Assembly: GCF_016584665.1 (NCBI RefSeq)
Contig: NZ_BBJB01000084.1
Span: forward strand, 1 to 64,000
From: Pseudanabaena sp. lw0831
GTDB lineage: Bacteria > Cyanobacteriota > Cyanobacteriia > Pseudanabaenales > Pseudanabaenaceae
Direction: 5' to 3'
DNA: 64,000 nucleotides
Both the position numbers and the translations under genes were made by a program. Below are positions 16,468 through 24,233 of the stretch, one piece after another (the first letter of the stretch is position 1; each line of letters opens with the position of its first letter). The notes below the pieces were generated by a model. The model was not told the origin of the DNA. It did not search any database and was given only the letters and a program-made list of their open reading frames with translations.

Positions 16468-16504
16468 AAAGAATTAGGTAGCGCTTCGCGCTACTTAATT
16501 CTTT
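16468..16504. terminator. bidirectional hairpin terminator
   Basis: AAAGAATTAGGTAGCG-CTTCG-CGCTACTTAATTCTTT between two convergent genes. It includes the stop codon region of the minus-strand oxidoreductase ending at 16503. Confidence 0.75.
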
Positions 16505-18062
16505 AGCTAAATTTAGTTAAAAACTTTAAAATTGACTGTGTACGTGGGGTCAGTAAAGTTTTCCGATAAGCATCAGCAGCTTTTTTGATCGCATCAGCTT
16601 GAGTGGGATAAGAATGAATCACACCAGAAAGTGCATTTAAGCCCTGCTTTGTCGCGATCGCAAAAGTAATTTCGCTAATCATTTCGCCAGCATGACGCGC
16701 CACAATTGTTGCCCCTAAAATCCGATCTGAGCCACGCTGATGCAGGATTTTAACAAATCCCTCCGTTTCTCCATCATAAATAGCCCGATCGACGGAAGAG
16801 AATGGAATTTTAATCTCATTGGTTTCTAAGCCTTTAACTTTAGCTTCTTCGGCATATAAACCCACATGGGCAATTTCGGGATCGGTATAAGTCACCCAAG
16901 GCATTACCAAATCACTCAGCTTACTCTTGCCTAAACCAAAGGGAGCAAATAACGTGTTTTTAATCACGATTCTGGCAGCAGCATCGGCAGCATGAGTAAA
17001 TTTCCAATCCATGCAGATATCTCCTGCGGCAAAAATGCGTGGGTTCGTAGTCTGGAGATAATCATTCACGATTACGCCGCGACGCTTGTCGTAGTCTACG
17101 CCCACAGCTTCCAGATTCAATCCCACATTTGGCGATCGCCCTGCACCAACCAGAATTTCATCAACTTCAATTTGGTTTGTAATTCCATTTTGTTGATAAT
17201 GGATGACTTTACCAGCGCTAGTTGTTTCGACTTCAGCGATCGCAGCGCCAAGAACTAAATTTAATCCTTCACGGATAAATTTTTGCTGGACAATTTCCGC
17301 CGCGTCAGCATCTTCGCGATCGAGTAAATGCGGATTTTTATGCAGTAATGTCACTTCACAGCCTAGGCGATGAAAAGCTTGGGCTAATTCACAACCAATT
17401 GGGCCACCACCGATCACCGCCAATCTTTTAGGGCGATCGGTCAGTGAGAATACAGTCTCATTGGTTAAATATCCAGCTTCGGCTAGTCCTGCAATTTTCG
17501 GATCGGCAGCCTTTGCACCTGTAGCGATTACGGCTTTTTTAAAGCGTAGTTGTATATTATTAACTGCGATCGCCTTCTCATTAATAAATTGTGCCGAACC
17601 AAGAAATACATCCACGCCGAGATTGCGAAATCGCTCAGCAGAGTCATGGTGACTAATCCCAGCACGGATTTTTCGCATTCGTTCCATGACGGCGGCAAAG
17701 TCAATATCAATATGGCTCGGAGGGTTAATTCCAAAGGGAGCCGCGTCAAGCATATCTGCAACAACCCTCGACGAACGAATCACACATTTAGAAGGAACGC
17801 AACCGACATTCAGGCAATCACCACCCATCAAGTTTTTCTCAATCAAGGCAACTTTTAATCCCAAGCCTAAACCTGCCGCCCCTGCCGCTACTACTAACCC
17901 TGCCGTTCCTGCACCAATCACGACCAGATCGTAAATAGCGGCTGGTTGAGGATTTACCCAATCAAGGGGATGTACATTTGCAATCAAATCACGATTATAG
18001 GCATCCACGGGCTGAATGAAATCTTCATAGCGATCGCTTGAATATGATTGGGATTGGGTCAT
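16503..18062 (-). CDS. pyridine nucleotide-disulfide oxidoreductase (mercuric-reductase-like)
   Basis: FAD/NAD(P)H disulfide oxidoreductase, 519 aa, with a FAD motif VVIGAGTAGLVVAAGAAGLG (about residues 46-65), redox-active disulfide GGDCLNVGCVPSKC (about 80-93), NAD(P) motif GGGPIGCELAQAF (about 216-228), second FAD motif IFAAGDIC, and a C-terminal dimerisation domain with HSYPTQADA. Cyanobacterial homologues are often labelled mercuric reductase. This protein has neither the N-terminal heavy-metal domain nor the C-terminal cysteine pair of MerA, so that label is not supported. The start is the ATG at 18062. Confidence 0.85.
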   Translation of the reverse strand: MTQSQSYSSDRYEDFIQPVDAYNRDLIANVHPLDWVNPQPAAIYDLVVIGAGTAGLVVAAGAAGLGLGLKVALIEKNLMGGDCLNVGCVPSKCVIRSSRVVADMLDAAPFGINPPSHIDIDFAAVMERMRKIRAGISHHDSAERFRNLGVDVFLGSAQFINEKAIAVNNIQLRFKKAVIATGAKAADPKIAGLAEAGYLTNETVFSLTDRPKRLAVIGGGPIGCELAQAFHRLGCEVTLLHKNPHLLDREDADAAEIVQQKFIREGLNLVLGAAIAEVETTSAGKVIHYQQNGITNQIEVDEILVGAGRSPNVGLNLEAVGVDYDKRRGVIVNDYLQTTNPRIFAAGDICMDWKFTHAADAAARIVIKNTLFAPFGLGKSKLSDLVMPWVTYTDPEIAHVGLYAEEAKVKGLETNEIKIPFSSVDRAIYDGETEGFVKILHQRGSDRILGATIVARHAGEMISEITFAIATKQGLNALSGVIHSYPTQADAIKKAADAYRKTLLTPRTQSILKFLTKFS

Positions 18063-18738
18063 GATTTGATACTGCTGATTAAATTAAGTAAAACGAATCA
18101 ATAAACTTGTGAAAAGTGTTACTTCGCGACACTTTTCACAAGTTTATTGATTCAGGTTTGAGCGCAAAACGCTGTAGTTCAAGTATAAGCACAGGATAAA
18201 AAATCAAAAATAGCTGCTAAATCAGCCTAAAAGTCTTATCCAGCAGCTATTTTGGGCTTGAAAGCTAAAATCGTTACTGGGAGGGTATTTCAAGTTTTTT
18301 GTCCTGTACTTAGATTTTTAATTTAAGAACAAAGCGCGTTGTAAAGTCAGTCCAGAACTAATCTGGATTTTAGTAGTATATTGAGAATAAATTGACGTGA
18401 GTAATGCGAATTGTGAAAATTTGTGACGCTGCTGGTAAAAGCAAGAGCTTAATATAGGTAAAATCATGAGGAATAAATTTTAAAATCTCGTATTTTAAAA
18501 TTTATTCAATAGATATAGGGTTTTGCGGTAGTTTGAGGTTAAATAGATGTTTTGTGCCGCATTAGCGTATGAATCATAAGTTATACCTACACCAATCAGA
18601 TTACCGTACATCACTGTATGTGAAAATAGGGATAATTTAGATGTATTAAAAGCTAAGCGTGCCTACAGTAAGTAAACTAACTCTTGAATTACTGGATTTA
18701 ATTTAGTCGAACCAGATTATTAATTGAAGGAACAAATT
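18063..18738. other. 676-bp gene-free interval
   Basis: Contains the hairpin 18095-18153; a short sequence TTCAGGTTTGAGCGCAAAAC (18152-18171) that resembles 26021-26040; an inverted repeat TTTAAAATCTCGTATTTTAA near 18478; the 7-mer GTTATAC at 18580-18586, which is the likely left border of the integron cassette array; and AT-rich sequence leading to the KTSC gene. No credible coding sequence. Confidence 0.6.
18095..18153. terminator. very long hairpin, orphan
   Basis: GAATCAATAAACTTGTGAAA+AGTGT-TACTTCGCG-ACACT+TTTCACAAGTTTATTGATTC, with arms of about 25 bases. It is upstream of the oxidoreductase start and has no gene ending beside it, so the gene it once terminated may be lost. Confidence 0.6.
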
Positions 18739-18939
18739 ATGGAAATGCAATCCGTTGACTCTAGTGCAATTCTTGAGATTGGATATAATGAGTCTACACA
18801 ACAAATGAAAATCAAATTCAAACAAGGTAAAGTCTATGATTTTTGTCAAGTTCCAAAACACATATTTCAAGGATTATTAGAATCGAGTTCTAAAGGAACT
18901 TATTACAATAATCACATAAGAGATAATTATCAATGCTGA
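18739..18939 (+). CDS. KTSC-domain small protein
   Basis: 66 residues from ATG 18739, with a GAAGGA Shine-Dalgarno 8 bases upstream. A TTG start 15 bases earlier is possible but would overlap the Shine-Dalgarno. The sequence fits the KTSC domain: the first strand with SSAILEIGYNESTQQMKIKF, then V-Y-D-F-C-Q-V-P, then F-Q-G-L-L-E-S-S-S-K-G-T-Y-Y-N-N-H-I-R. The fold also occurs at the C-terminus of some lysyl-tRNA synthetases; its role is unknown. It is 47 bases upstream of the OLD nuclease and inferred to lie in the same cassette. Confidence 0.8.
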   Translation: MEMQSVDSSAILEIGYNESTQQMKIKFKQGKVYDFCQVPKHIFQGLLESSSKGTYYNNHIRDNYQC

Positions 18940-18986
18940 AATATTGCCGTTAAATAATGTCAATCAAATAAATGTAAGGTAGGATT

Positions 18987-20723
18987 TTGAAAATAAAGCG
19001 TCTTAAAGTTGATGGATTTAGATCCTTAGTTGATTTTGAAATCACATTTGATGAGAATCTAACAATAATTGTTGGAGAAAACGATAGTGGAAAAACATCA
19101 TTAATTGACTGCCTCAAAGTTATTACCCAAGGGCGTTCAGTTACGCTTGATGATATAACCTATGGAAAAGACCAACTTACAATTTCTATTGAAATCGATG
19201 ATTCCATTTTTAATCGAGTTTACGAGCGTAGCAATAATAGTATAAGAGAGATCTCATTCCATGAATTGCCAACACCTGCTTCTCTTGATAAAATTCTGGA
19301 GCGCCTCAATAGCAATCAATCTAATGAACAAGATAAAGATTACATATTCGAGACAGCACGTAGATTTGGATCAACGGTAAGAGCAAATTCAAATCTTGAC
19401 AACTTAAAAAATGGGATCATAGAAAAGATTGGAAATCGCACTGAAAATTTGGTCATCCAAAATGCTACATTTCCACGTTTCAACAATATTCAATTAGATG
19501 GTCGTCAATTTGAAAATATTTCAGATTTCTTTAAAGAGGTATTCATAAAAGAGAAACAATCTAGTATTTGGCAGGAGCGTATCGATGAAAATTCTACGAT
19601 AGAGGATTTTGTAAAAGATCGAATAAGCGAATATTCAACAGAAATATCGCAGCAGTTAGAGGAGTTAGGAATACTTGACAAGATGCGAATATTCCTTCGA
19701 GATTTGACTGATGTGAAAATTGAGCTAATATGCCAACCGCGAAACCTAAATATAGAGGCAAAAGTAATATTTCTTGAGAATGGAAATGAAATCAACATTG
19801 ACAATAAAGGAGATGGCACAAAGCGAAGAATAACGATGGCTCTTCTTGAGTTTAAAAAAGAGAAATCGCTAGTTCCTGGTGATGATAAAACTGTTTACCT
19901 GCTCGATGAACCAGATACGCATTTACATGTCAAAGCTCAAATAGATCTTGTTAACACAGTCGAAGCTTTTGCTCTGTCTGGCAATCAGGTCATTTTGACT
20001 ACTCACTCTCCGTTTATTATGAATTCTGTAAAGCCGAGTCAGGTCAGATTGCTGAGCCGATATAGAAATAACACATCTGTTGTATTCTTAAAAGAAAATC
20101 CATTAGCGATAACACAATCGCTTAGATCATTAGGAGTTGAAAATACTCATTTATTCTTCTCTCGTCAAATTGTACTAGTTGAGGGCGAGACGGAAGAAAA
20201 TTTTATCTCATCATATTATTTGGCACGTACTCAACGCACAATTTCCTCTGGGCTAATCAAGGTTATAAACGCTCAAGGGATACAGAATATTCCAGGATTT
20301 GCAAAGGCAATACTTGAATTACATGGTTCAGAAAAAGTTTATGTTTTATATGATAATGATGCTTCAGAAGAACTTGTAAGTCTTATTAGATGTCTTAATC
20401 TTCCAGAATGTCAGAATTTCCAAATAGGGCATCGTGAGTTTGAAGATGCATTTGATTCCCTAGTTTTATATCGGTGTTGGGTTGAGTATCATAATGAATG
20501 TGGTCGAACCCATCCAAATACGTGGTGTGTTGATGCAATTGAGAATCTTAAAAGCGAATGCACTACTAGTGAAGATAAGAATAAATTTTCTAAAGCTCTA
20601 AAATCTCTGAATCAGGGGGGCAAAAAGATGACTAAGCCTCTATTCGGTCAGGCTCTCGGAACTTATATAACGTCAGAAGAGCTACCTCTAATCATAGGAA
20701 ATCTCTTCACACTTTTATGCTGA
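18987..20723 (+). CDS. OLD-family ATP-dependent endonuclease
   Basis: Overcoming-lysogenization-defect type nuclease: an N-terminal SMC-like ABC ATPase plus a C-terminal TOPRIM nuclease, a class used against phages. The Walker A is GENDSGKTS (about residues 31-39), the signature region is near NKGDGTKRRITMAL, and the Walker B is VYLLDEPDTHLH (about 302-313). The H-loop is TTHSPF. TOPRIM motifs are LVEGETEENF (about 396-405) and YVLYDNDAS (about 450-458). TTG start, with AAGGTAGGA just upstream. The length (578 aa) is within the class 1 range. There is no UvrD-like helicase beside it, so it is not a Gabija pair. The coding sequence is AT-rich relative to the flanks, consistent with acquisition as a cassette. 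Confidence 0.85.
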   Translation: MKIKRLKVDGFRSLVDFEITFDENLTIIVGENDSGKTSLIDCLKVITQGRSVTLDDITYGKDQLTISIEIDDSIFNRVYERSNNSIREISFHELPTPASLDKILERLNSNQSNEQDKDYIFETARRFGSTVRANSNLDNLKNGIIEKIGNRTENLVIQNATFPRFNNIQLDGRQFENISDFFKEVFIKEKQSSIWQERIDENSTIEDFVKDRISEYSTEISQQLEELGILDKMRIFLRDLTDVKIELICQPRNLNIEAKVIFLENGNEINIDNKGDGTKRRITMALLEFKKEKSLVPGDDKTVYLLDEPDTHLHVKAQIDLVNTVEAFALSGNQVILTTHSPFIMNSVKPSQVRLLSRYRNNTSVVFLKENPLAITQSLRSLGVENTHLFFSRQIVLVEGETEENFISSYYLARTQRTISSGLIKVINAQGIQNIPGFAKAILELHGSEKVYVLYDNDASEELVSLIRCLNLPECQNFQIGHREFEDAFDSLVLYRCWVEYHNECGRTHPNTWCVDAIENLKSECTTSEDKNKFSKALKSLNQGGKKMTKPLFGQALGTYITSEELPLIIGNLFTLLC

Positions 20724-20753
20724 TCGGCAATATTACTAAGCCAATACCGCAAT

Positions 20754-20839
20754 GTATAACAAATTACTGCACCCGACCGTATGCTAAACTTCCTATATTA
20801 CCCTAGATTATTGGCGGCGGGTGAGTTCAACCGTTATGC
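20754..20839 (+). other. attC: attC recombination site 1
   Basis: 86 bp. R'' box GTATAAC, L'' ACTGCACCCGAC, a variable central part, L' GGCGGGTGAGTTCAACC, R' box GTTATGC. CACCCG and CGGGTG pair, leaving the GTTCAA-type spacer seen in classical attC sites. It lies 30 bases after the OLD nuclease stop. Confidence 0.8.
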
Positions 20840-20928
20840 CGAAATCGATAAGTTCGTTAAGGTTGTTTGTTTCTAGCCAAATTAGGCAATTAATCAAATC
20901 TTTAAAATCTAAGGAGTGCTACTTACTC

Positions 20929-21297
20929 ATGACTGTTTCAACTTCTACAACAATGAGAAAGGCTTACCAAGTTATTCAGATTCGTGTTCAACTGCTAGGG
21001 CGTGGAATGACCAATGAGATTATGAACCTTTATGTGAACGGGAAGCGTCTTAAACCCAAAGTGAAGACTATACATGAATTTTTAAACTACTTAGGTGCTC
21101 AAGGTTTCTGTCTTGTAACCGCTGAGTTGGAAACTGAAGGAATCTACACACATTTTTACACTTTACAGCGTGAGATTCTAACTCAGCAACCTCCCGAAGG
21201 AGATATTTTTGATGAACTTGCCAAAGCAAAGGAAGGTGCTGATTTTGGAGACACAGTTAAAAATCTTCTTGAAGGTGGACTTGATCGTCTTGCTTAA
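20929..21297 (+). CDS. cassette-encoded protein of unknown function
   Basis: 122 residues from ATG 20929, with Shine-Dalgarno AAGGAG 12 bases upstream; a longer open frame from 20821 crosses attC1 and is not credible. I do not recognise the family. Visible features are a basic N-terminal half with alternating beta-type sequence (VIQIRVQLLGRG, NLYVNGKRLKPKVKT), then a helix HEFLNYLGAQGF and another strand VTAELETEG. The tail is acidic. The alternation suggests a small alpha/beta domain. It fills a whole integron cassette (20834-21395). Confidence 0.7.
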   Translation: MTVSTSTTMRKAYQVIQIRVQLLGRGMTNEIMNLYVNGKRLKPKVKTIHEFLNYLGAQGFCLVTAELETEGIYTHFYTLQREILTQQPPEGDIFDELAKAKEGADFGDTVKNLLEGGLDRLA

Positions 21298-21316
21298 TTA
21301 TTGATAAGTGATCGTA

Positions 21317-21401
21317 GCATAACAAATCGTTGCACCTGACTTAATGAGGCGATCGACGATAAGCCAAAACTATCGTGAGCAGGTGAACTCAGCCGTTAGC
21401 C
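21317..21401 (+). other. attC: attC recombination site 2
   Basis: 85 bp. R'' GCATAAC, L'' TTGCACCTGAC, L' GCAGGTGAACTCAG, R' GTTAGCC. The inner stem includes CGATA/TATCG. This is the most canonical of the three sites, close in form to classical 59-base elements. It lies 20 bases after the stop of the unknown cassette gene. Confidence 0.85.
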
Positions 21402-21439
21402 AGCAAGAATTAGGAGACTGATCAAATAGGAAATGAATC

Positions 21440-21865
21440 ATGAAATGCTTTAGTACTTCTACGATTATCCGAGCTTCGCCGGAAGCGATCTGGAACATTC
21501 TGGTTGACGGAAATAACTGGTTGCAGTGGAACCCCACTATTGCCAAAATCGAAGGAAATATTGCTCTCGGCGAGACGTTGAAGGTACACACAAAGATAAA
21601 TCCAAATCAAGCATTCCCAGTCAAAGTAAGCGAGTTCATTCCCTATGAACAGATGGTTTGGACGGGCGGGATGCCGTTTGGACTCTTTAAAGGCGAGCGT
21701 ACCTACAGTTTGTCTAAGCAGATGGATGGATTTGTGGAGTTTTCAATGCGAGAGATGTTTAGTGGGCTTATGGCACCATTGATAACCCAATCAATTCCTG
21801 ATCTTCAACCTTCGTTCGATGAGTTTGCCGCTTCACTGAAGAAACGGGCGGAAGAGACTCCTTGA
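21440..21865 (+). CDS. SRPBCC-family (polyketide cyclase/dehydrase-like) protein
   Basis: 141 residues with the START/SRPBCC helix-grip fold: first strand CFSTSTIIRASPEAIWNIL, then the classical W-x-x-W-N-P block (WLQWNPTIAKIEG), a glycine-rich GETLKVHTK segment, a mid-strand MVWTGGMPFGLFKGERTYSL, and a long C-terminal helix SFDEFAASLKKRAEE. Such proteins bind small hydrophobic ligands; the ligand cannot be read. SRPBCC proteins are frequent cargo of environmental integron cassettes. It occupies cassette 21396-21979. The start is the ATG at 21440. Confidence 0.85.
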   Translation: MKCFSTSTIIRASPEAIWNILVDGNNWLQWNPTIAKIEGNIALGETLKVHTKINPNQAFPVKVSEFIPYEQMVWTGGMPFGLFKGERTYSLSKQMDGFVEFSMREMFSGLMAPLITQSIPDLQPSFDEFAASLKKRAEETP

Positions 21866-21890
21866 TTAGGGAGCAATCGACTGGTATGCT

Positions 21891-21985
21891 GCCTAACAAT
21901 CCCGTTGCACACCGACCCGACCCGCCGAAAGGTTATCTGTTGGGAGTTTGAGGTTATCTCCGGCGAGTGAATGGGGGCGTTATAC
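21891..21985 (+). other. attC: attC recombination site 3 (last)
   Basis: 95 bp. R'' GCCTAAC, L'' GTTGCACACCGACC, GC-rich inner part, L' CCGGCGAGTGAATGG, R' GTTATAC. It begins 26 bases after the SRPBCC stop. The R' box is the same 7-mer as the inferred left border of the array at 18580. Confidence 0.75.
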
Positions 21986-22323
21986 CGAATCGACACGCCC
22001 GTTAAAGTTGTCTTTTTTTACGAAAATAGGCAAGCAAAAATGGTTGACTTCGTTGTTTAGTTCCGAAAGGTTATTGGCGATCGCAAAGTCAAATAATAGC
22101 ACTGTTGGATAATAACGACTAGAATCGCTGAAATCCTCACAGAGAATAGCTTTCAAGCCTTTTGATTAAATATCCTTGAAACTTTTGCCCAGACTAGGTT
22201 ACAAGACTTTTTGATTGCCCAACAGGGCTAATTATTAAGCAATCGCCAATAATTGATCACTTTTATTGCTAAGCACTAAGTACGAGCCAAGAAGATTTGA
22301 GAAGCGATATTTTGTATCGCTTC
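21986..22323. other. 338-bp gene-free interval right of the cassette array
   Basis: Its first 60 bases (CGAATCGACACGCCCGTTAA and on) resemble the first bases of cassette 2 after attC1 (CGAAATCGATAAGTTCGTTA and on). This suggests a decayed further cassette. The rest has short broken frames only, then the left arm of the hairpin at 22287-22337. Confidence 0.6.
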
Positions 22324-22337
22324 TCAAATCTTCTTGG
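22287..22337. terminator. long hairpin overlapping the DoxX stop codon
   Basis: CCAAGAAGATTTGAGAAGCG+ATA-TTTTG-mirror, with 23-base arms. The right arm is the last four codons and stop of the DoxX gene; the left arm is their inverted copy. Confidence 0.8.
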
Positions 22338-22698
22338 TGTACCACCAAGCCCATGCGATGAGTACTGCTTGCAGTGGCAACCGCCCCCAACGTAATAAGT
22401 CTGAGTCGGGAATTCCATCTATTTGAATACGATTAACTGCCATGTTGATATTGGCAGGAAATACAGCAATGAATAGGGCGATCAATCCCCATGCTGCGGC
22501 TTGACTGACTGGGGGAACTAACAAGCCAACTCCACCTAAAATTTCAAATACGCCACTAATGTAAACCAAAGCTAAAGGATAAGGTAAAAAAGAAGGAACG
22601 ATCTTCACAAAGGGATCGGGCGTTACCCAGTGAAGTGTCCCTGCGGTGATCATGAATATCGCAAGCAAGACCCGTAAAACTGATTTAATTGTGAGCAT
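22324..22698 (-). CDS. DoxX-family membrane protein
   Basis: 124-residue inner-membrane protein with four hydrophobic helices at about 5-22, 42-62, 66-85 and 104-120. Family landmarks are the first-helix RVLLAIFMITAGTLHWVTPDPF and GVFEILGGVGLLVP near residue 50-65. DoxX-like proteins have been tied to thiosulfate:quinone oxidoreductase and redox stress, but roles vary. The ATG at 22698 lies one base from the stop of the DUF72 gene, so the two are co-transcribed. The end of the gene is folded into a long hairpin. Confidence 0.85.
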   Translation of the reverse strand: MLTIKSVLRVLLAIFMITAGTLHWVTPDPFVKIVPSFLPYPLALVYISGVFEILGGVGLLVPPVSQAAAWGLIALFIAVFPANINMAVNRIQIDGIPDSDLLRWGRLPLQAVLIAWAWWYTKKI

Positions 22699-22699
22699 A

Positions 22700-23584
22700 T
22701 CAAAATAGTGTTAATTGTTGTGGCGGCGGAGTTAGATCATTCCAAGGCAAGGCTGGCACAGGAACATTTGCTTTTTCTAGCATTTCCTGAAAATATTTAG
22801 CATTATGCGGCGATCGCTCTTCGATAGGACAATGCATAAAAAAATAAATTTGGGTTCCATTAACTAACCAGTCTTGCAAATAAGTCACCCATTCTTGCCA
22901 AAAGCGAATATTTAAATCGCGATCGGGATGGCTAATGAAACGCACAATGCTAAAGGGTGCTGTCACTAAAGGTTGTAAAGGTAAATTTGGCTTACGACGT
23001 TCCTGCTGCACAGGGATTGACAGCGCGGGATCAATTTCATCACCTGAGGGCAGATCGTATATTGGTCGAGAATCGAGTAACACTCGACCAACACCTAGAT
23101 TTTGTAATAGCGTATTCAGGCGATCGCAATGGGGCGCTTTAAACCAATCCCCATGACGTACTTCCAGAGAAATTTGATAGTTTTTTGTCGGCAAAGCTCT
23201 GAGAAAACTTTCTAAATCAACAAAATTAACTGGGCTATAGCTCGGTGGCAGTTGGACAAATAGCACACCTAAGCGATCGCCAAACCCAGACATTAAACCT
23301 AAAAAATGTAACGCCCGATCGATATAAGGCAGTAACAAACCATTATGGGTTAATTGTTTTGGGAACTTAGGACAAAACTTAAAATTTGCGGGAGTATCCT
23401 TTGCCCAGCGCTCAACAGTCTGGCGATCGGGGATCACATAAAAAGTCGAATTTACCTCTACGGTTGCTAGGCGATCGCTATAGAGTTGCAAAAACTCCGT
23501 TGAACGGCTCCCTCTAGGATAAAAATCACCAACCCAACCTTTATAAGCCCAAACCGCACAACCCAAATAAAATTGAAAGTCCAT
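22700..23584 (-). CDS. DUF72 (YecE-like) TIM-barrel protein
   Basis: DUF72 family, predicted TIM-barrel of unknown activity. Landmarks are the opening YLGCAVWAYKGWVGDFYPRG, the block LATVEVNSTFYVIPDRQTVERW (about residues 32-53), FKFCPKFPKQLTH, LGVLFVQLPPSY, and the closing IYFFMHCPIEERSPHNA. The in-frame ATG at 23584 begins the conserved fold directly; an upstream extension to 23701 is hydrophobic and unlike the family. 294 aa with this start. It is followed by DoxX with a 1-base gap. Confidence 0.85.
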   Translation of the reverse strand: MDFQFYLGCAVWAYKGWVGDFYPRGSRSTEFLQLYSDRLATVEVNSTFYVIPDRQTVERWAKDTPANFKFCPKFPKQLTHNGLLLPYIDRALHFLGLMSGFGDRLGVLFVQLPPSYSPVNFVDLESFLRALPTKNYQISLEVRHGDWFKAPHCDRLNTLLQNLGVGRVLLDSRPIYDLPSGDEIDPALSIPVQQERRKPNLPLQPLVTAPFSIVRFISHPDRDLNIRFWQEWVTYLQDWLVNGTQIYFFMHCPIEERSPHNAKYFQEMLEKANVPVPALPWNDLTPPPQQLTLF

Positions 23585-23714
23585 AAAAACTCGCTCTTTA
23601 TTAAATCGCAGAACACTTGCGACAATTGCTATAGCATATATATGAATATCTGATAGAAATGTAATTGTTGTATAAGTCTCAACTATGTTACTTTGTGTCA
23701 AAGTTTCTTAGTAG

Positions 23715-24233
23715 ATGAAATCAAATATGCAGCACTTAGATGATCTAGCCAAAGATCAGCCAATCACTCCATGGGATGGCAAAGTTTTGCGAAGTCGAAT
23801 TGTCAAAACTTTAGAGTTGGTGCAAGACGCGATCGCTATCTCTCTTTGTATTGGGCTGTTTTGTGTCATGGTGTTGCAGCTTAAAGAGATTTTTCTATCT
23901 TTATTAACCACCCTGCACTTTCATGACATCACTGCAGATATTTTATTCATCCTCATTTTAGTGGAATTATTTCGGCTATTAATTATTTATCTACAAGAAC
24001 AGCGAGTTTCGATAGGAGTTTCCGTAGAAGTCACCATCGTTTCTGTATTGCGAGAAGTGATTGTTAAAGGATTGTTAGAAGTTGAATGGAAGCAAGTCAT
24101 GGCTACATGTGCTTTTTTAATTGCTCTAGCCCTACTATTAGTAGTCAGGGTTTGGTTGCCGCCCACATTTGAAGGCGTTGATCCTCAACAAATAGCCTCC
24201 GCACGACGCAAGGACAAAAAAATTACAGAATAA
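23715..24233 (+). CDS. PsiE-family (phosphate-starvation-inducible) membrane protein
   Basis: 172 residues with four predicted membrane helices (about 34-56, 68-92, 107-118, 126-146). It has the PsiE signature blocks ILFILILVELFRLLIIYL and VTIVSVLREVIVKGL. PsiE homologues are induced by phosphate starvation in E. coli; the mechanism is unknown. The C-terminus is polar and basic. The start is the ATG at 23715, with a second possible ATG four codons on. Its last codons are included in the hairpin 24224-24276. Confidence 0.8.
   Translation: MKSNMQHLDDLAKDQPITPWDGKVLRSRIVKTLELVQDAIAISLCIGLFCVMVLQLKEIFLSLLTTLHFHDITADILFILILVELFRLLIIYLQEQRVSIGVSVEVTIVSVLREVIVKGLLEVEWKQVMATCAFLIALALLLVVRVWLPPTFEGVDPQQIASARRKDKKITE

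What the first reader, a model, noticed from the sequence alone, without database searches (positions are those of the whole stretch)
18581..21985. Integron-type cassette array without integrase carrying an OLD nuclease
Three sites with complete attC architecture (R'' RYYYAAC, paired L boxes, R' GTTRRRY, 85-95 bp) each lie 20-30 bases after a gene stop, all in one orientation. The first bases of each cassette pair with its own R'' box (TTATAC/GTATAAC, TTATGC/GCATAAC, TTAGCC/GCCTAAC with one mismatch), the test expected of excisable cassettes. Integron arrays lacking an integrase (CALINs) are known, and defence genes in cassettes have been reported; a cyanobacterial array whose first cassette is a two-gene KTSC + OLD nuclease unit is uncommon as far as I know.
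Basis: partly seen in the sequence, partly recalled or inferred. Interest (0 to 1): 0.88.

Follow-up and report, generated by a model that had tools for sequence, protein, structure and literature searches.

The report
Integrase-less integron site swapping gene cassettes
A cyanobacterium keeps a chromosomal docking site for mobile gene cassettes (one of them a probable anti-virus nuclease) with no integrase gene beside it, yet close relatives hold completely different cassettes at the very same cut point, which suggests that an integrase encoded elsewhere serves several such sites.

Summary
A covariance model of attC sites, trained only on other genomes of the genus, finds exactly three in the 64-kb window, at the stated places and in one orientation (73.6, 56.8, 40.5 bits; next 12.5). 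Two R'' boxes are RYRYAAC rather than RYYYAAC. "CALIN" is incomplete. The array starts at an attI-type site (18516-18584, cut 18580^18581) of a family that also lies beside the genome's one intact integron integrase, which is on another contig and has no attC near it. The window genome and three sister taxa share about 2.1 kb (90-93%) up to that cut and then have unrelated cassettes. Genus-wide (26 genomes) attI-type sites are scattered: of 58 sites of a second attI class, 9 have a near-full-length intI, 10 a partial gene or stub, 39 none detected. In 19 of 20 intI-less or stub pairs with homology running up to the cut, nothing aligns after it. My reading: integrase-shed attI platforms that keep exchanging cassettes in trans. 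The comparative pattern is shown; the trans reaction is inferred. KTSC + OLD nuclease is a real two-gene unit, also found outside a cassette in one relative. Precedents exist (Xanthomonas CALINs; a Shewanella prophage CALIN with its own attI): a new variant of a known kind.

The parts
18310..18515 (+). Conserved module upstream of the attI-type site (no gene recognised)
   Evidence: 275-bp query (module + attI): 8 places, the window included, in 6 of 26 genus genomes at E<=1e-5, besides four palindrome self-matches and one attI-only hit on C93; shared between loci without intI
18471..18508 (.). AT-rich palindrome just before the attI-type site
   Evidence: Sequence; in paralogous copies both arms change together (read by eye from the alignment)
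18516..18584 (+). attI-type site (P3 family); cut between G18580 and T18581
   Evidence: Model R3 built without this locus and its orthologues: 43.1 bits, E 2.3e-12 at 18519-18584, next 7.4 bits; same family beside the own intI on C55; sister taxa diverge right after this GTT
18581..20833 (+). Cassette 1: KTSC gene + OLD-family nuclease gene + attC A
   Evidence: Start pairs 7/7 with own R''; attC A
18739..18939 (+). KTSC-domain protein, 66 aa
   Evidence: Pfam PF13619, E 2.6e-22
18987..20723 (+). OLD-family ATPase-TOPRIM nuclease, 578 aa, TTG start
   Evidence: Pfam AAA_15 1.2e-33 and OLD-like_TOPRIM 5e-10; PADLOC AriA/Old/GajA profiles
20754..20839 (+). attC A
   Evidence: R1 73.6 bits, E 4.6e-16
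20834..21395 (+). Cassette 2: one gene + attC B
   Evidence: Start pairs 7/7 with own R''
20929..21297 (+). Gene of cassette 2, 122 aa from ATG, no Pfam match
   Evidence: the scanned ORF began upstream, at 20821
21317..21401 (+). attC B
   Evidence: R1 56.8 bits, E 7.5e-12
21396..21979 (+). Cassette 3: SRPBCC-type gene + attC C
   Evidence: Start pairs 6/7 with own R''; the same cassette, 88% over 443 bp from its GTT on, at a P1-type attI in G023
21440..21865 (+). Polyketide_cyc2/SRPBCC-type protein, 141 aa
   Evidence: Pfam PF10604, E 7.8e-9
21891..21985 (+). attC C
   Evidence: R1 40.5 bits, E 8.8e-8
21980..22100 (+). Remnant of a gene-less cassette at the right border
   Evidence: Right border at 21978-21980 also in G012, G016 and G020; in G014 the unit is there twice and the outer copy aligns from 21992; the unit recurs in 213-217-bp gene-less cassettes in G007

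Best explanation
The window holds an integron cassette platform that has no integrase gene of its own: an attI-type site (cut 18580^18581) followed by three cassettes (KTSC + OLD nuclease; a 122-aa protein of unknown family; an SRPBCC protein) and the remnant of a gene-less one. Cassettes were inserted at this attI by an integron integrase encoded elsewhere. The genome's own IntI on contig C55, beside an attI of the same family without attC, is the obvious candidate; an IntI lost since, or one in a donor cell, is possible too. The IntI pairs the folded bottom strand of a cassette's attC with attI and cuts at G^TT. Shown: attC sites, attI family, exact borders, different cassettes in sister taxa that share the same intI-less upstream DNA, and the same pattern at other loci of the genus. 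Inferred: that IntI acts in trans, that it is this IntI, and that the OLD unit defends against phages.
For: attC: model trained elsewhere, three hits only. attI: a profile without this locus and its orthologues gives 43.1 bits, E 2.3e-12, next 7.4; a profile of nine intI-less sites recovers, among six loci searched, the site next to the own intI (E 3.6e-12) and the one next to an intI stub in G021 (5.9e-9). Own intI: 450.7 bits for TIGR02249, aligned over residues 13-328 with the solved integrase IntI4, 2A3V, E 7.3e-88; no attC at E<=0.05 within the 19 kb fetched around it. Turnover: window, G012, G014 and G016 share 2.08-2.09 kb (90.4-93.4%) up to the cut, no intI found in any of the four stretches, and nothing aligns after it; identity in 10-bp bins 0.83-1.0 before the cut, 0.62 in the bin that holds GTT, 0.20-0.32 beyond. 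Cassette 3 sits behind another attI class in G023 from exactly its GTT. Genus: 58 P1-type sites against 1 for the reversed pattern; 54 of 58 attC hits downstream on the same strand, 4 upstream, none on the opposite strand; 19 of 20 intI-less/stub pairs change right after the cut.
Against: No recombination was observed; trans action is an inference. G016 has a cassette here but no IntI at E<=1e-20, so its integrase was lost, lies outside the assembly, or acted in a donor. As a bare pair the window attI and the own C55 attI are not convincingly alike: the local score of 27 is equalled elsewhere in the window; only the profile separates them. The profile members were found with a model (R2) that contained the window site, so R3 is not wholly independent. 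Across 17 non-orthologous P3 sites the drop at the cut is weaker (0.36-0.61 before, 0.48 in the GTT bin, 0.25-0.33 after; ungapped, and the script put the cut wrongly in at least G020:C133 and G015). 17 of 39 intI-less P1 sites and 9 of 18 intI-less P3 sites show no attC downstream in the stretch read, some of them at contig ends. Most genomes are drafts, and all are unnamed.
Confidence: 0.78

Rival explanations
1. Plain CALIN: the fossil tail of an old integron that lost its integrase; the cassettes are inert leftovers.
For: Three attC and no intI in the window; [quoted passage not shown] Partial or stub intI beside 10 of 58 P1 sites shows that intI decay happens in this genus.
Against: A fossil inherited by sister taxa should show the same cassettes with gaps; instead the window genome and three sister taxa have unrelated DNA right after the cut, while 2.08 kb upstream stays 90-93% alike. 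An attI-type site heads the array.
Confidence: 0.13
2. Cassettes landed in an ordinary chromosomal site (attG type) by off-target insertion.
For: Insertion at sites that are neither attC nor attI is known experimentally (Loot et al. 2024, seen only as cited in PMC12444791); more distant relatives G004, G010 and G022 have lpd and doxX nearly adjacent with no array.
Against: The left border fits a 68-position attI profile, not just GTT, and module + attI occur together at other places too.
Confidence: 0.05
3. The arrays differ between taxa because whole lpd-doxX segments were exchanged by homologous recombination with donors holding other arrays; no integrase worked at this site in these lineages.
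For: Flanks of 90-94% identity would allow recombination; exchange between relatives is common (general knowledge).
Against: It needs donors in which the cassettes had already been put at this same attI, so it only moves the insertion elsewhere. Cassette 3 occurs behind another attI class at another locus from exactly its GTT, and other loci show the same pattern.
Confidence: 0.04

Closest known systems
CALIN (cluster of attC sites lacking an integron-integrase), IntegronFinder
   Same: Two or more attC sites, no intI nearby; 'can be mobilized in trans by a functional IntI' (PMC12444791, passage)
   Different: Headed by an attI-type site of a recurrent family; content differs between sister taxa at the same cut
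CALINs of Xanthomonas (PMC12444791, passages)
   Same: About half of the genomes have CALINs away from the intI locus, at seven chromosomal loci among the better sampled species, at fairly conserved positions
   Different: The passages I read do not describe attI sites at those loci; here attI-type sites head intI-less arrays
[quoted passage not shown]
   Same: An intI-less array that starts at an attI also found beside an intI in the same element
   Different: One prophage case; here several chromosomal sites per genome across a genus, with evidence of cassette replacement
Sedentary chromosomal integron (Vibrio type; description partly recalled)
   Same: attC architecture, G^TT cut, gene-less cassettes, attI family beside intI
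   Different: The window platform has no intI; the attC found are spread over several loci (own genome: 11 on eight contigs); G007, with 68 attC, comes nearest to the classical form
OLD-family defence nucleases (Old, GajA of Gabija, AriA of PARIS, PtuA)
   Same: ATPase + OLD-type TOPRIM; PADLOC matches AriA 119.2, Old 115.8, GajA 107 bits
   Different: Partner is a KTSC protein; no GajB, AriB or PtuB in the cassette; far below NCBIfam cut-offs (PtuA 63.7 of 500 bits)

Membership tests
[quoted passage not shown]
   Three; IntegronFinder's own model was not available
CALIN | No integron integrase nearby | tested here: met
   tblastn of the own IntI over the 64-kb window, E up to 1: nothing
Complete integron | intI next to attI and cassettes | tested here: not met
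   intI is on contig C55, the array on C84
Complete integron | attI site at the head of the array | tested here: met
   By sequence: R3 43.1 bits, E 2.3e-12; use by an IntI not tested
Complete integron | Promoter Pc driving the cassettes | tested here: inconclusive
   Window: upstream of the array on the + strand only a 9/12 match at 18392-18420, and no excess over shuffles in the region (13 found, 13.7 expected). P1-type sites: a promoter-like pair of at least 10/12 in 9 of 9 full, 10 of 10 stub and 22 of 38 intI-less sites, against 1 of 171 control windows; one intI-less site near a contig end was left out
attC site (integron cassette) | R''/R' and L''/L' pairing with unpaired L'' bases, and own-end pairing | tested here: met
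   on the training set 93.4% of cells paired, 26.9-38.8% when slid. Site C is the weakest
attG insertion | Insertion in unrelated chromosomal sequence with little beyond the core (definition partly recalled) | tested here: not met
Gabija / PARIS / Septu | Partner gene (GajB / AriB / PtuB) beside the ATPase (partners recalled) | tested here: not met
   Cassette 1 holds only KTSC and the OLD protein; the other three proteins of the array match no PADLOC model at E<=0.01
OLD-family nuclease | ATPase domain followed by OLD-type TOPRIM domain | tested here: met
   activity not testable here

The most novel reading that the evidence does not exclude
Pseudanabaena runs a distributed integron. attI platforms are inherited as stand-alone landing pads at many chromosomal places (nine attI-type sites found in this genome, one with an integrase), and an integrase encoded at one place, or passing through the population, loads and empties them in trans, possibly across attI classes. 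The integrase gene is then a dispensable local part and the platform is the heritable unit.
Probability: 0.45. Interest if true: 0.8.

Novelty: new variant of a known kind. Interest (0 to 1): 0.62.

Why it matters
CALINs are frequent and have been proposed to be degraded integrons (PMC9024848, passages). Here comparative data say that some intI-less arrays kept changing cassettes at a defined attI after the local integrase gene had gone, and that one genome can hold many such platforms. If an integrase really serves them in trans, cassette capture need not be tied to one array, and counts of 'complete integrons' understate the active ones. The genus offers natural replicates (one locus with full, stub and no intI) to test this. 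It also puts an OLD-family nuclease with a KTSC partner among the cassettes of a cyanobacterium.

Tried and rejected
A home-made attC scanner with strict R boxes missed the three sites, two R'' not being RYYYAAC. A looser one found A and C but not B, and several chance sites. The covariance model replaced both. Rfam, E up to 1 on 17000-24000: four microRNA-model matches to hairpins, all far below the gathering scores. An intI remnant in the window: none. 'G012 keeps attC C' (my note): the match from 21887 on is only similarity of attC type. Direct pairwise proof that the window attI equals the own C55 attI: not above background; replaced by a profile. A wide occurrence of the OLD protein: 1 of 386 cyanobacterial genomes at E<=1e-40, the own one (G004, which has an 80% copy, was not sampled or was missed). 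KTSC beside the nearest plasmid relative: a 96-aa protein with a sub-threshold WYL match instead. The P1 pattern hits G010:C116 and G019:C78 are probably not attI sites (3 mismatches; homology runs on for 1500 bp past the cut at 97.5%). Clustering sites into loci by distant flanks gave 50 groups of 66 sites, four with more than one member; it fails to join the four sites of the window's own locus, so I use it only for the group of eight. Literature searches: in the listings I saw no paper on integrons of Pseudanabaena (11 papers hold both words, none in title or abstract; I opened none of these) and no genus-wide account of attI-headed intI-less arrays; the library lacks most subscription journals.
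Full report
WHAT IS THERE. The window is G000:C84:1-64000 of a 5.26-Mb draft genome in 118 contigs. The genus is Pseudanabaena by inference: intI loci of G020 and G021 agree in place or contig length with contigs titled Pseudanabaena. Between lpd (16503-18062, -) and doxX (22324-22698, -) lie three gene units on the + strand: KTSC (18739-18939) + OLD-family nuclease (18987-20723); a 122-aa protein without Pfam match (20929-21297); an SRPBCC-type protein (21440-21865).

ATTC SITES. I built a covariance model (R1) from 18 attC sites of G007, G011 and G014, picked with my own scanner, none from the window; one is from the G014 array at the orthologous locus, from a different cassette. On that set the named structure is paired in 93.4% of cells, with 27 cells changed on both sides; with partners slid by 1-3 columns 26.9-38.8%. 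With filters off R1 finds three sites in 64 kb, both strands: 20754-20839 (73.6 bits, E 4.6e-16), 21317-21401 (56.8, 7.5e-12), 21891-21985 (40.5, 8.8e-8); next 12.5 bits, E 0.91. In the array B has two non-standard pairs between R'' and the following R', C one in the L boxes. Cassette starts pair with the own R'' in 7/7, 7/7 and 6/7 positions. Two R'' are RYRYAAC.

THE LEFT END IS AN ATTI-TYPE SITE. Upstream of the first cassette lies a 70-bp sequence that recurs in the genus and is found beside the genome's own integrase gene. The bare pairwise comparison with that attI is not above background (score 27, equalled elsewhere in the window). A profile R3 of 11 sites, without this locus and its orthologues, gives 43.1 bits, E 2.3e-12 at 18519-18584, next 7.4 bits. 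A profile of nine intI-less sites alone, run on six loci, recovers the site next to the own intI (3.6e-12), the one next to an intI stub in G021 (5.9e-9), and the window (2.9e-10). A caution: those sites were first found with model R2, which contained the window and C55 sites.

THE INTEGRASE IS ELSEWHERE. TIGR02249 gives one full gene in G000, C55:21211-22152 (450.7 bits, cut-off 265), a C-terminal fragment on C101 (135.2 bits) and three matches under 35 bits. The 328-aa protein aligns from residue 13 to its end with the solved IntI4 (2A3V, 7.3e-88). Around it, 19 kb hold an attI-type site and a remnant of a gene-less cassette but no attC at E<=0.05. The genome has 11 attC at E<=1.5e-4 on eight contigs, and two weaker matches: three in the window, two on C117, one each on C108, C85, C7, C44, C90 and C37. 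Genome-wide attC counts are lower bounds: only 150 first-look candidates per genome were scored.

CASSETTES ARE REPLACED AT THIS SITE. G012, G014 and G016 have the same flanks. Upstream homology is continuous for 2.08-2.09 kb at 90.4-93.4% in all six pairs of the four genomes and stops at G^TT; no alignment (E<=1e-3) starts within 40 bp after it. Ten-base bins before the cut are 0.83-1.0 identical, the bin with GTT 0.62, the bins beyond 0.20-0.32. The right border lies at 21978-21980 in G012, G016 and G020 as well; in G014 the border unit occurs twice and the outer copy aligns from 21992. G020's contig starts just after the left cut. Contents: G012 a gene-less cassette, then a 264-aa and a 291-aa ORF; G016 one 225-aa ORF; G014 a 79-aa and a 108-aa ORF and a stretch with two ORFs; G020 the same gene-less first cassette as G012, then a 142-aa ORF. 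More distant relatives G004, G010 and G022 have lpd and doxX almost adjacent (36-164 bp between matches), with no array. Cassette 3 of the window occurs in G023 on another contig, 88% over 443 bp with one gap, from exactly its GTT, directly behind a P1-type attI; no intI on that 4450-bp contig.

HOW GENERAL IS IT. P3 family (the window's): R2 gives 31 matches in 18 of 26 genomes at E<=0.01. I read 20 of the 21 with E<=6.9e-4 (G020:C141 and the ten weaker ones were left out). One adjoins a full intI (C55), one a stub (G021:C7); for the other 18 no intI was found (17 with six IntI queries, E<=0.01, in the stretch fetched; the window with the own IntI). Sixteen of 20 keep GTT at the cut by my reading. 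Ten of 20 (nine of the 18 intI-less) have an attC downstream at E<=0.05; all 16 attC found in these loci lie downstream on the same strand. Among 17 non-orthologous P3 sites the fall of identity at the cut is weaker than among orthologues (0.36-0.61 before, 0.48 in the GTT bin, 0.25-0.33 after; ungapped, with the cut misplaced in at least two). Module + attI without intI occurs on three contigs of G014 alone (C59, C57, C5) and at other loci; flanks further out are mostly unrelated, though G014:C57 shares 315-454 bp with G015 and G022. So at least some platforms spread, or decayed, without their integrase.

P1 family: from attI sites next to other intI genes I derived a 25-base pattern; with up to 3 mismatches it has 58 matches in 24 of 26 genomes, its reversal 1. 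All 58 were fetched with up to 4.5 kb on each side, less at contig ends. intI aligned over 270 aa or more lies within 1.5 kb of 9 sites, a partial gene or stub of 10, nothing at E<=1e-3 of 39 (one of these, G000:C108, has a weak 43-aa match farther off); an attC (E<=0.05) follows in 7, 7 and 22 of these. Of 58 attC hits 54 are downstream on the same strand, 4 upstream on the same strand, none on the opposite strand; two of the four belong to the neighbouring G008 platform, whose two overlapping loci make two attC count twice. A promoter-like pair of at least 10/12 lies in the 130 bp before the cut in 9 of 9, 10 of 10 and 22 of 38, against 1 of 171 control windows. The own genome has five P1 sites, with no intI near, each followed by one attC. 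With C55, C84, C93 and C43 of the P3 family that makes nine attI-type sites, one with an integrase gene.

ONE LOCUS, THREE STATES. Eight genomes share one P1 locus by flank: intI is full in G010 and G014, partial or a stub in G004, G012 and G020, not found in G000, G005 and G019. One search took the 58 P1 sites and 8 of the 20 P3 sites. Among pairs without full intI whose homology runs at least 400 bp up to the cut there are 20, and 19 have nothing alignable after it; six of these are the pairs of the window's locus, and pairs within a locus are not independent. The exception, G010:C116/G019:C78, is probably not an attI. G005, G012, G019 and G020 are continuous there over 2.1-2.2 kb at 82-88%, so the loss of intI is older than their split, and yet all four differ after the cut. 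The same holds for G014:C42/G020:C155 (91.3% over 2.7 kb) and G001:C19/G019:C14 (78.6% over 2.1 kb). This is the core of the argument: replacement after loss of the local integrase, at the integrase's own cut point.

MECHANISM. Shown: sites, borders, different contents, family relations. Inferred from knowledge of integrons: bottom-strand folding of attC, recombination with attI at G^TT by IntI, and action in trans. Not known: which IntI; whether a P3 IntI uses P1 sites; whether the agent is resident. Nine of 26 genomes have no IntI at E<=1e-20, yet all nine have attC (2-11 each at E<=1e-3). So integrases come and go, or act in donors, or lie outside the drafts.

THE OLD CASSETTE. The 578-aa protein has the ATPase and OLD-type TOPRIM domains. 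Its best PADLOC matches are AriA, Old and GajA (119, 116, 107 bits), and it is far below NCBIfam cut-offs; no known partner gene is present in the array. G004 has the same KTSC + OLD pair at 79.8% over 1986 nt, not in a cassette (no attC in 11 kb), behind ORFs that I read as a toxin-antitoxin pair. So the pair is a unit that a cassette has taken up. Defence is likely from the family and untested.

LITERATURE. CALINs as proposed degraded integrons and their numbers: PMC9024848 (passages). Xanthomonas CALINs at seven loci apart from intI, and 'mobilized in trans': PMC12444791 (passages). [quoted passage not shown] A cyanobacterial attC model existed in 2021: PMC8352920 (passages). Partial attI sites in unusual cassettes: PMC12901181 (abstract and outline). 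Gene-less cassettes with promoter activity in Vibrionaceae: PMC11014356 (search listing only). OLD nucleases in defence: PMC10568477 (search listing only).

VERDICT. A true integron array; 'CALIN' is right by definition but misses the attI and the turnover. New variant of a known kind, of good interest because it makes the question 'are integrase-less arrays dead?' testable.

Noticed in passing
window 21978-22100; L157, L158 (G007:C1:3502000-3538000): A 120-130-bp unit is the body of gene-less 213-217-bp cassettes, many in tandem in G007, and also the 5' part of some gene cassettes. Of 34 distinct copies, 13 to 34 have a stop, depending on the frame (fewest in + frame 2); weak consensus fold. 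Function unknown.
   Followed up: partly
L147 (G012) and L150 (G020), first cassette: Both share a gene-less first cassette with TTGACA motifs, followed by different second cassettes right after the next cut.
   Followed up: partly
window 18095-18154 and 22274-22351: Long hairpins on both sides of the array, hit below threshold by miRNA models in Rfam; the left one has similar copies in other genomes of the genus.
   Followed up: no
L160 (G007:C1:2217000-2226000): An array headed by a third attI type (P2, nearly identical to the one beside G007's intI at 4.48 Mb), with two copies of an intI N-terminal stub.
   Followed up: partly
L015:8965-9174 (G000:C101, contig end): C-terminal fragment of a second intI next to a gltB-like gene and, at the contig end, a transposase-like ORF (gene names are my reading).
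   Followed up: no
L182/L257 (G014:C5): An attI-type site with a decayed cut (TTT for GTT), followed by a gene that looks foreign to me; no attC found.
   Followed up: partly
G000:C85:44266-44351 and G000:C117:642-968: attC sites of the own genome for which neither attI search (P3 model, P1 pattern) gave a hit on the same contig.
   Followed up: no
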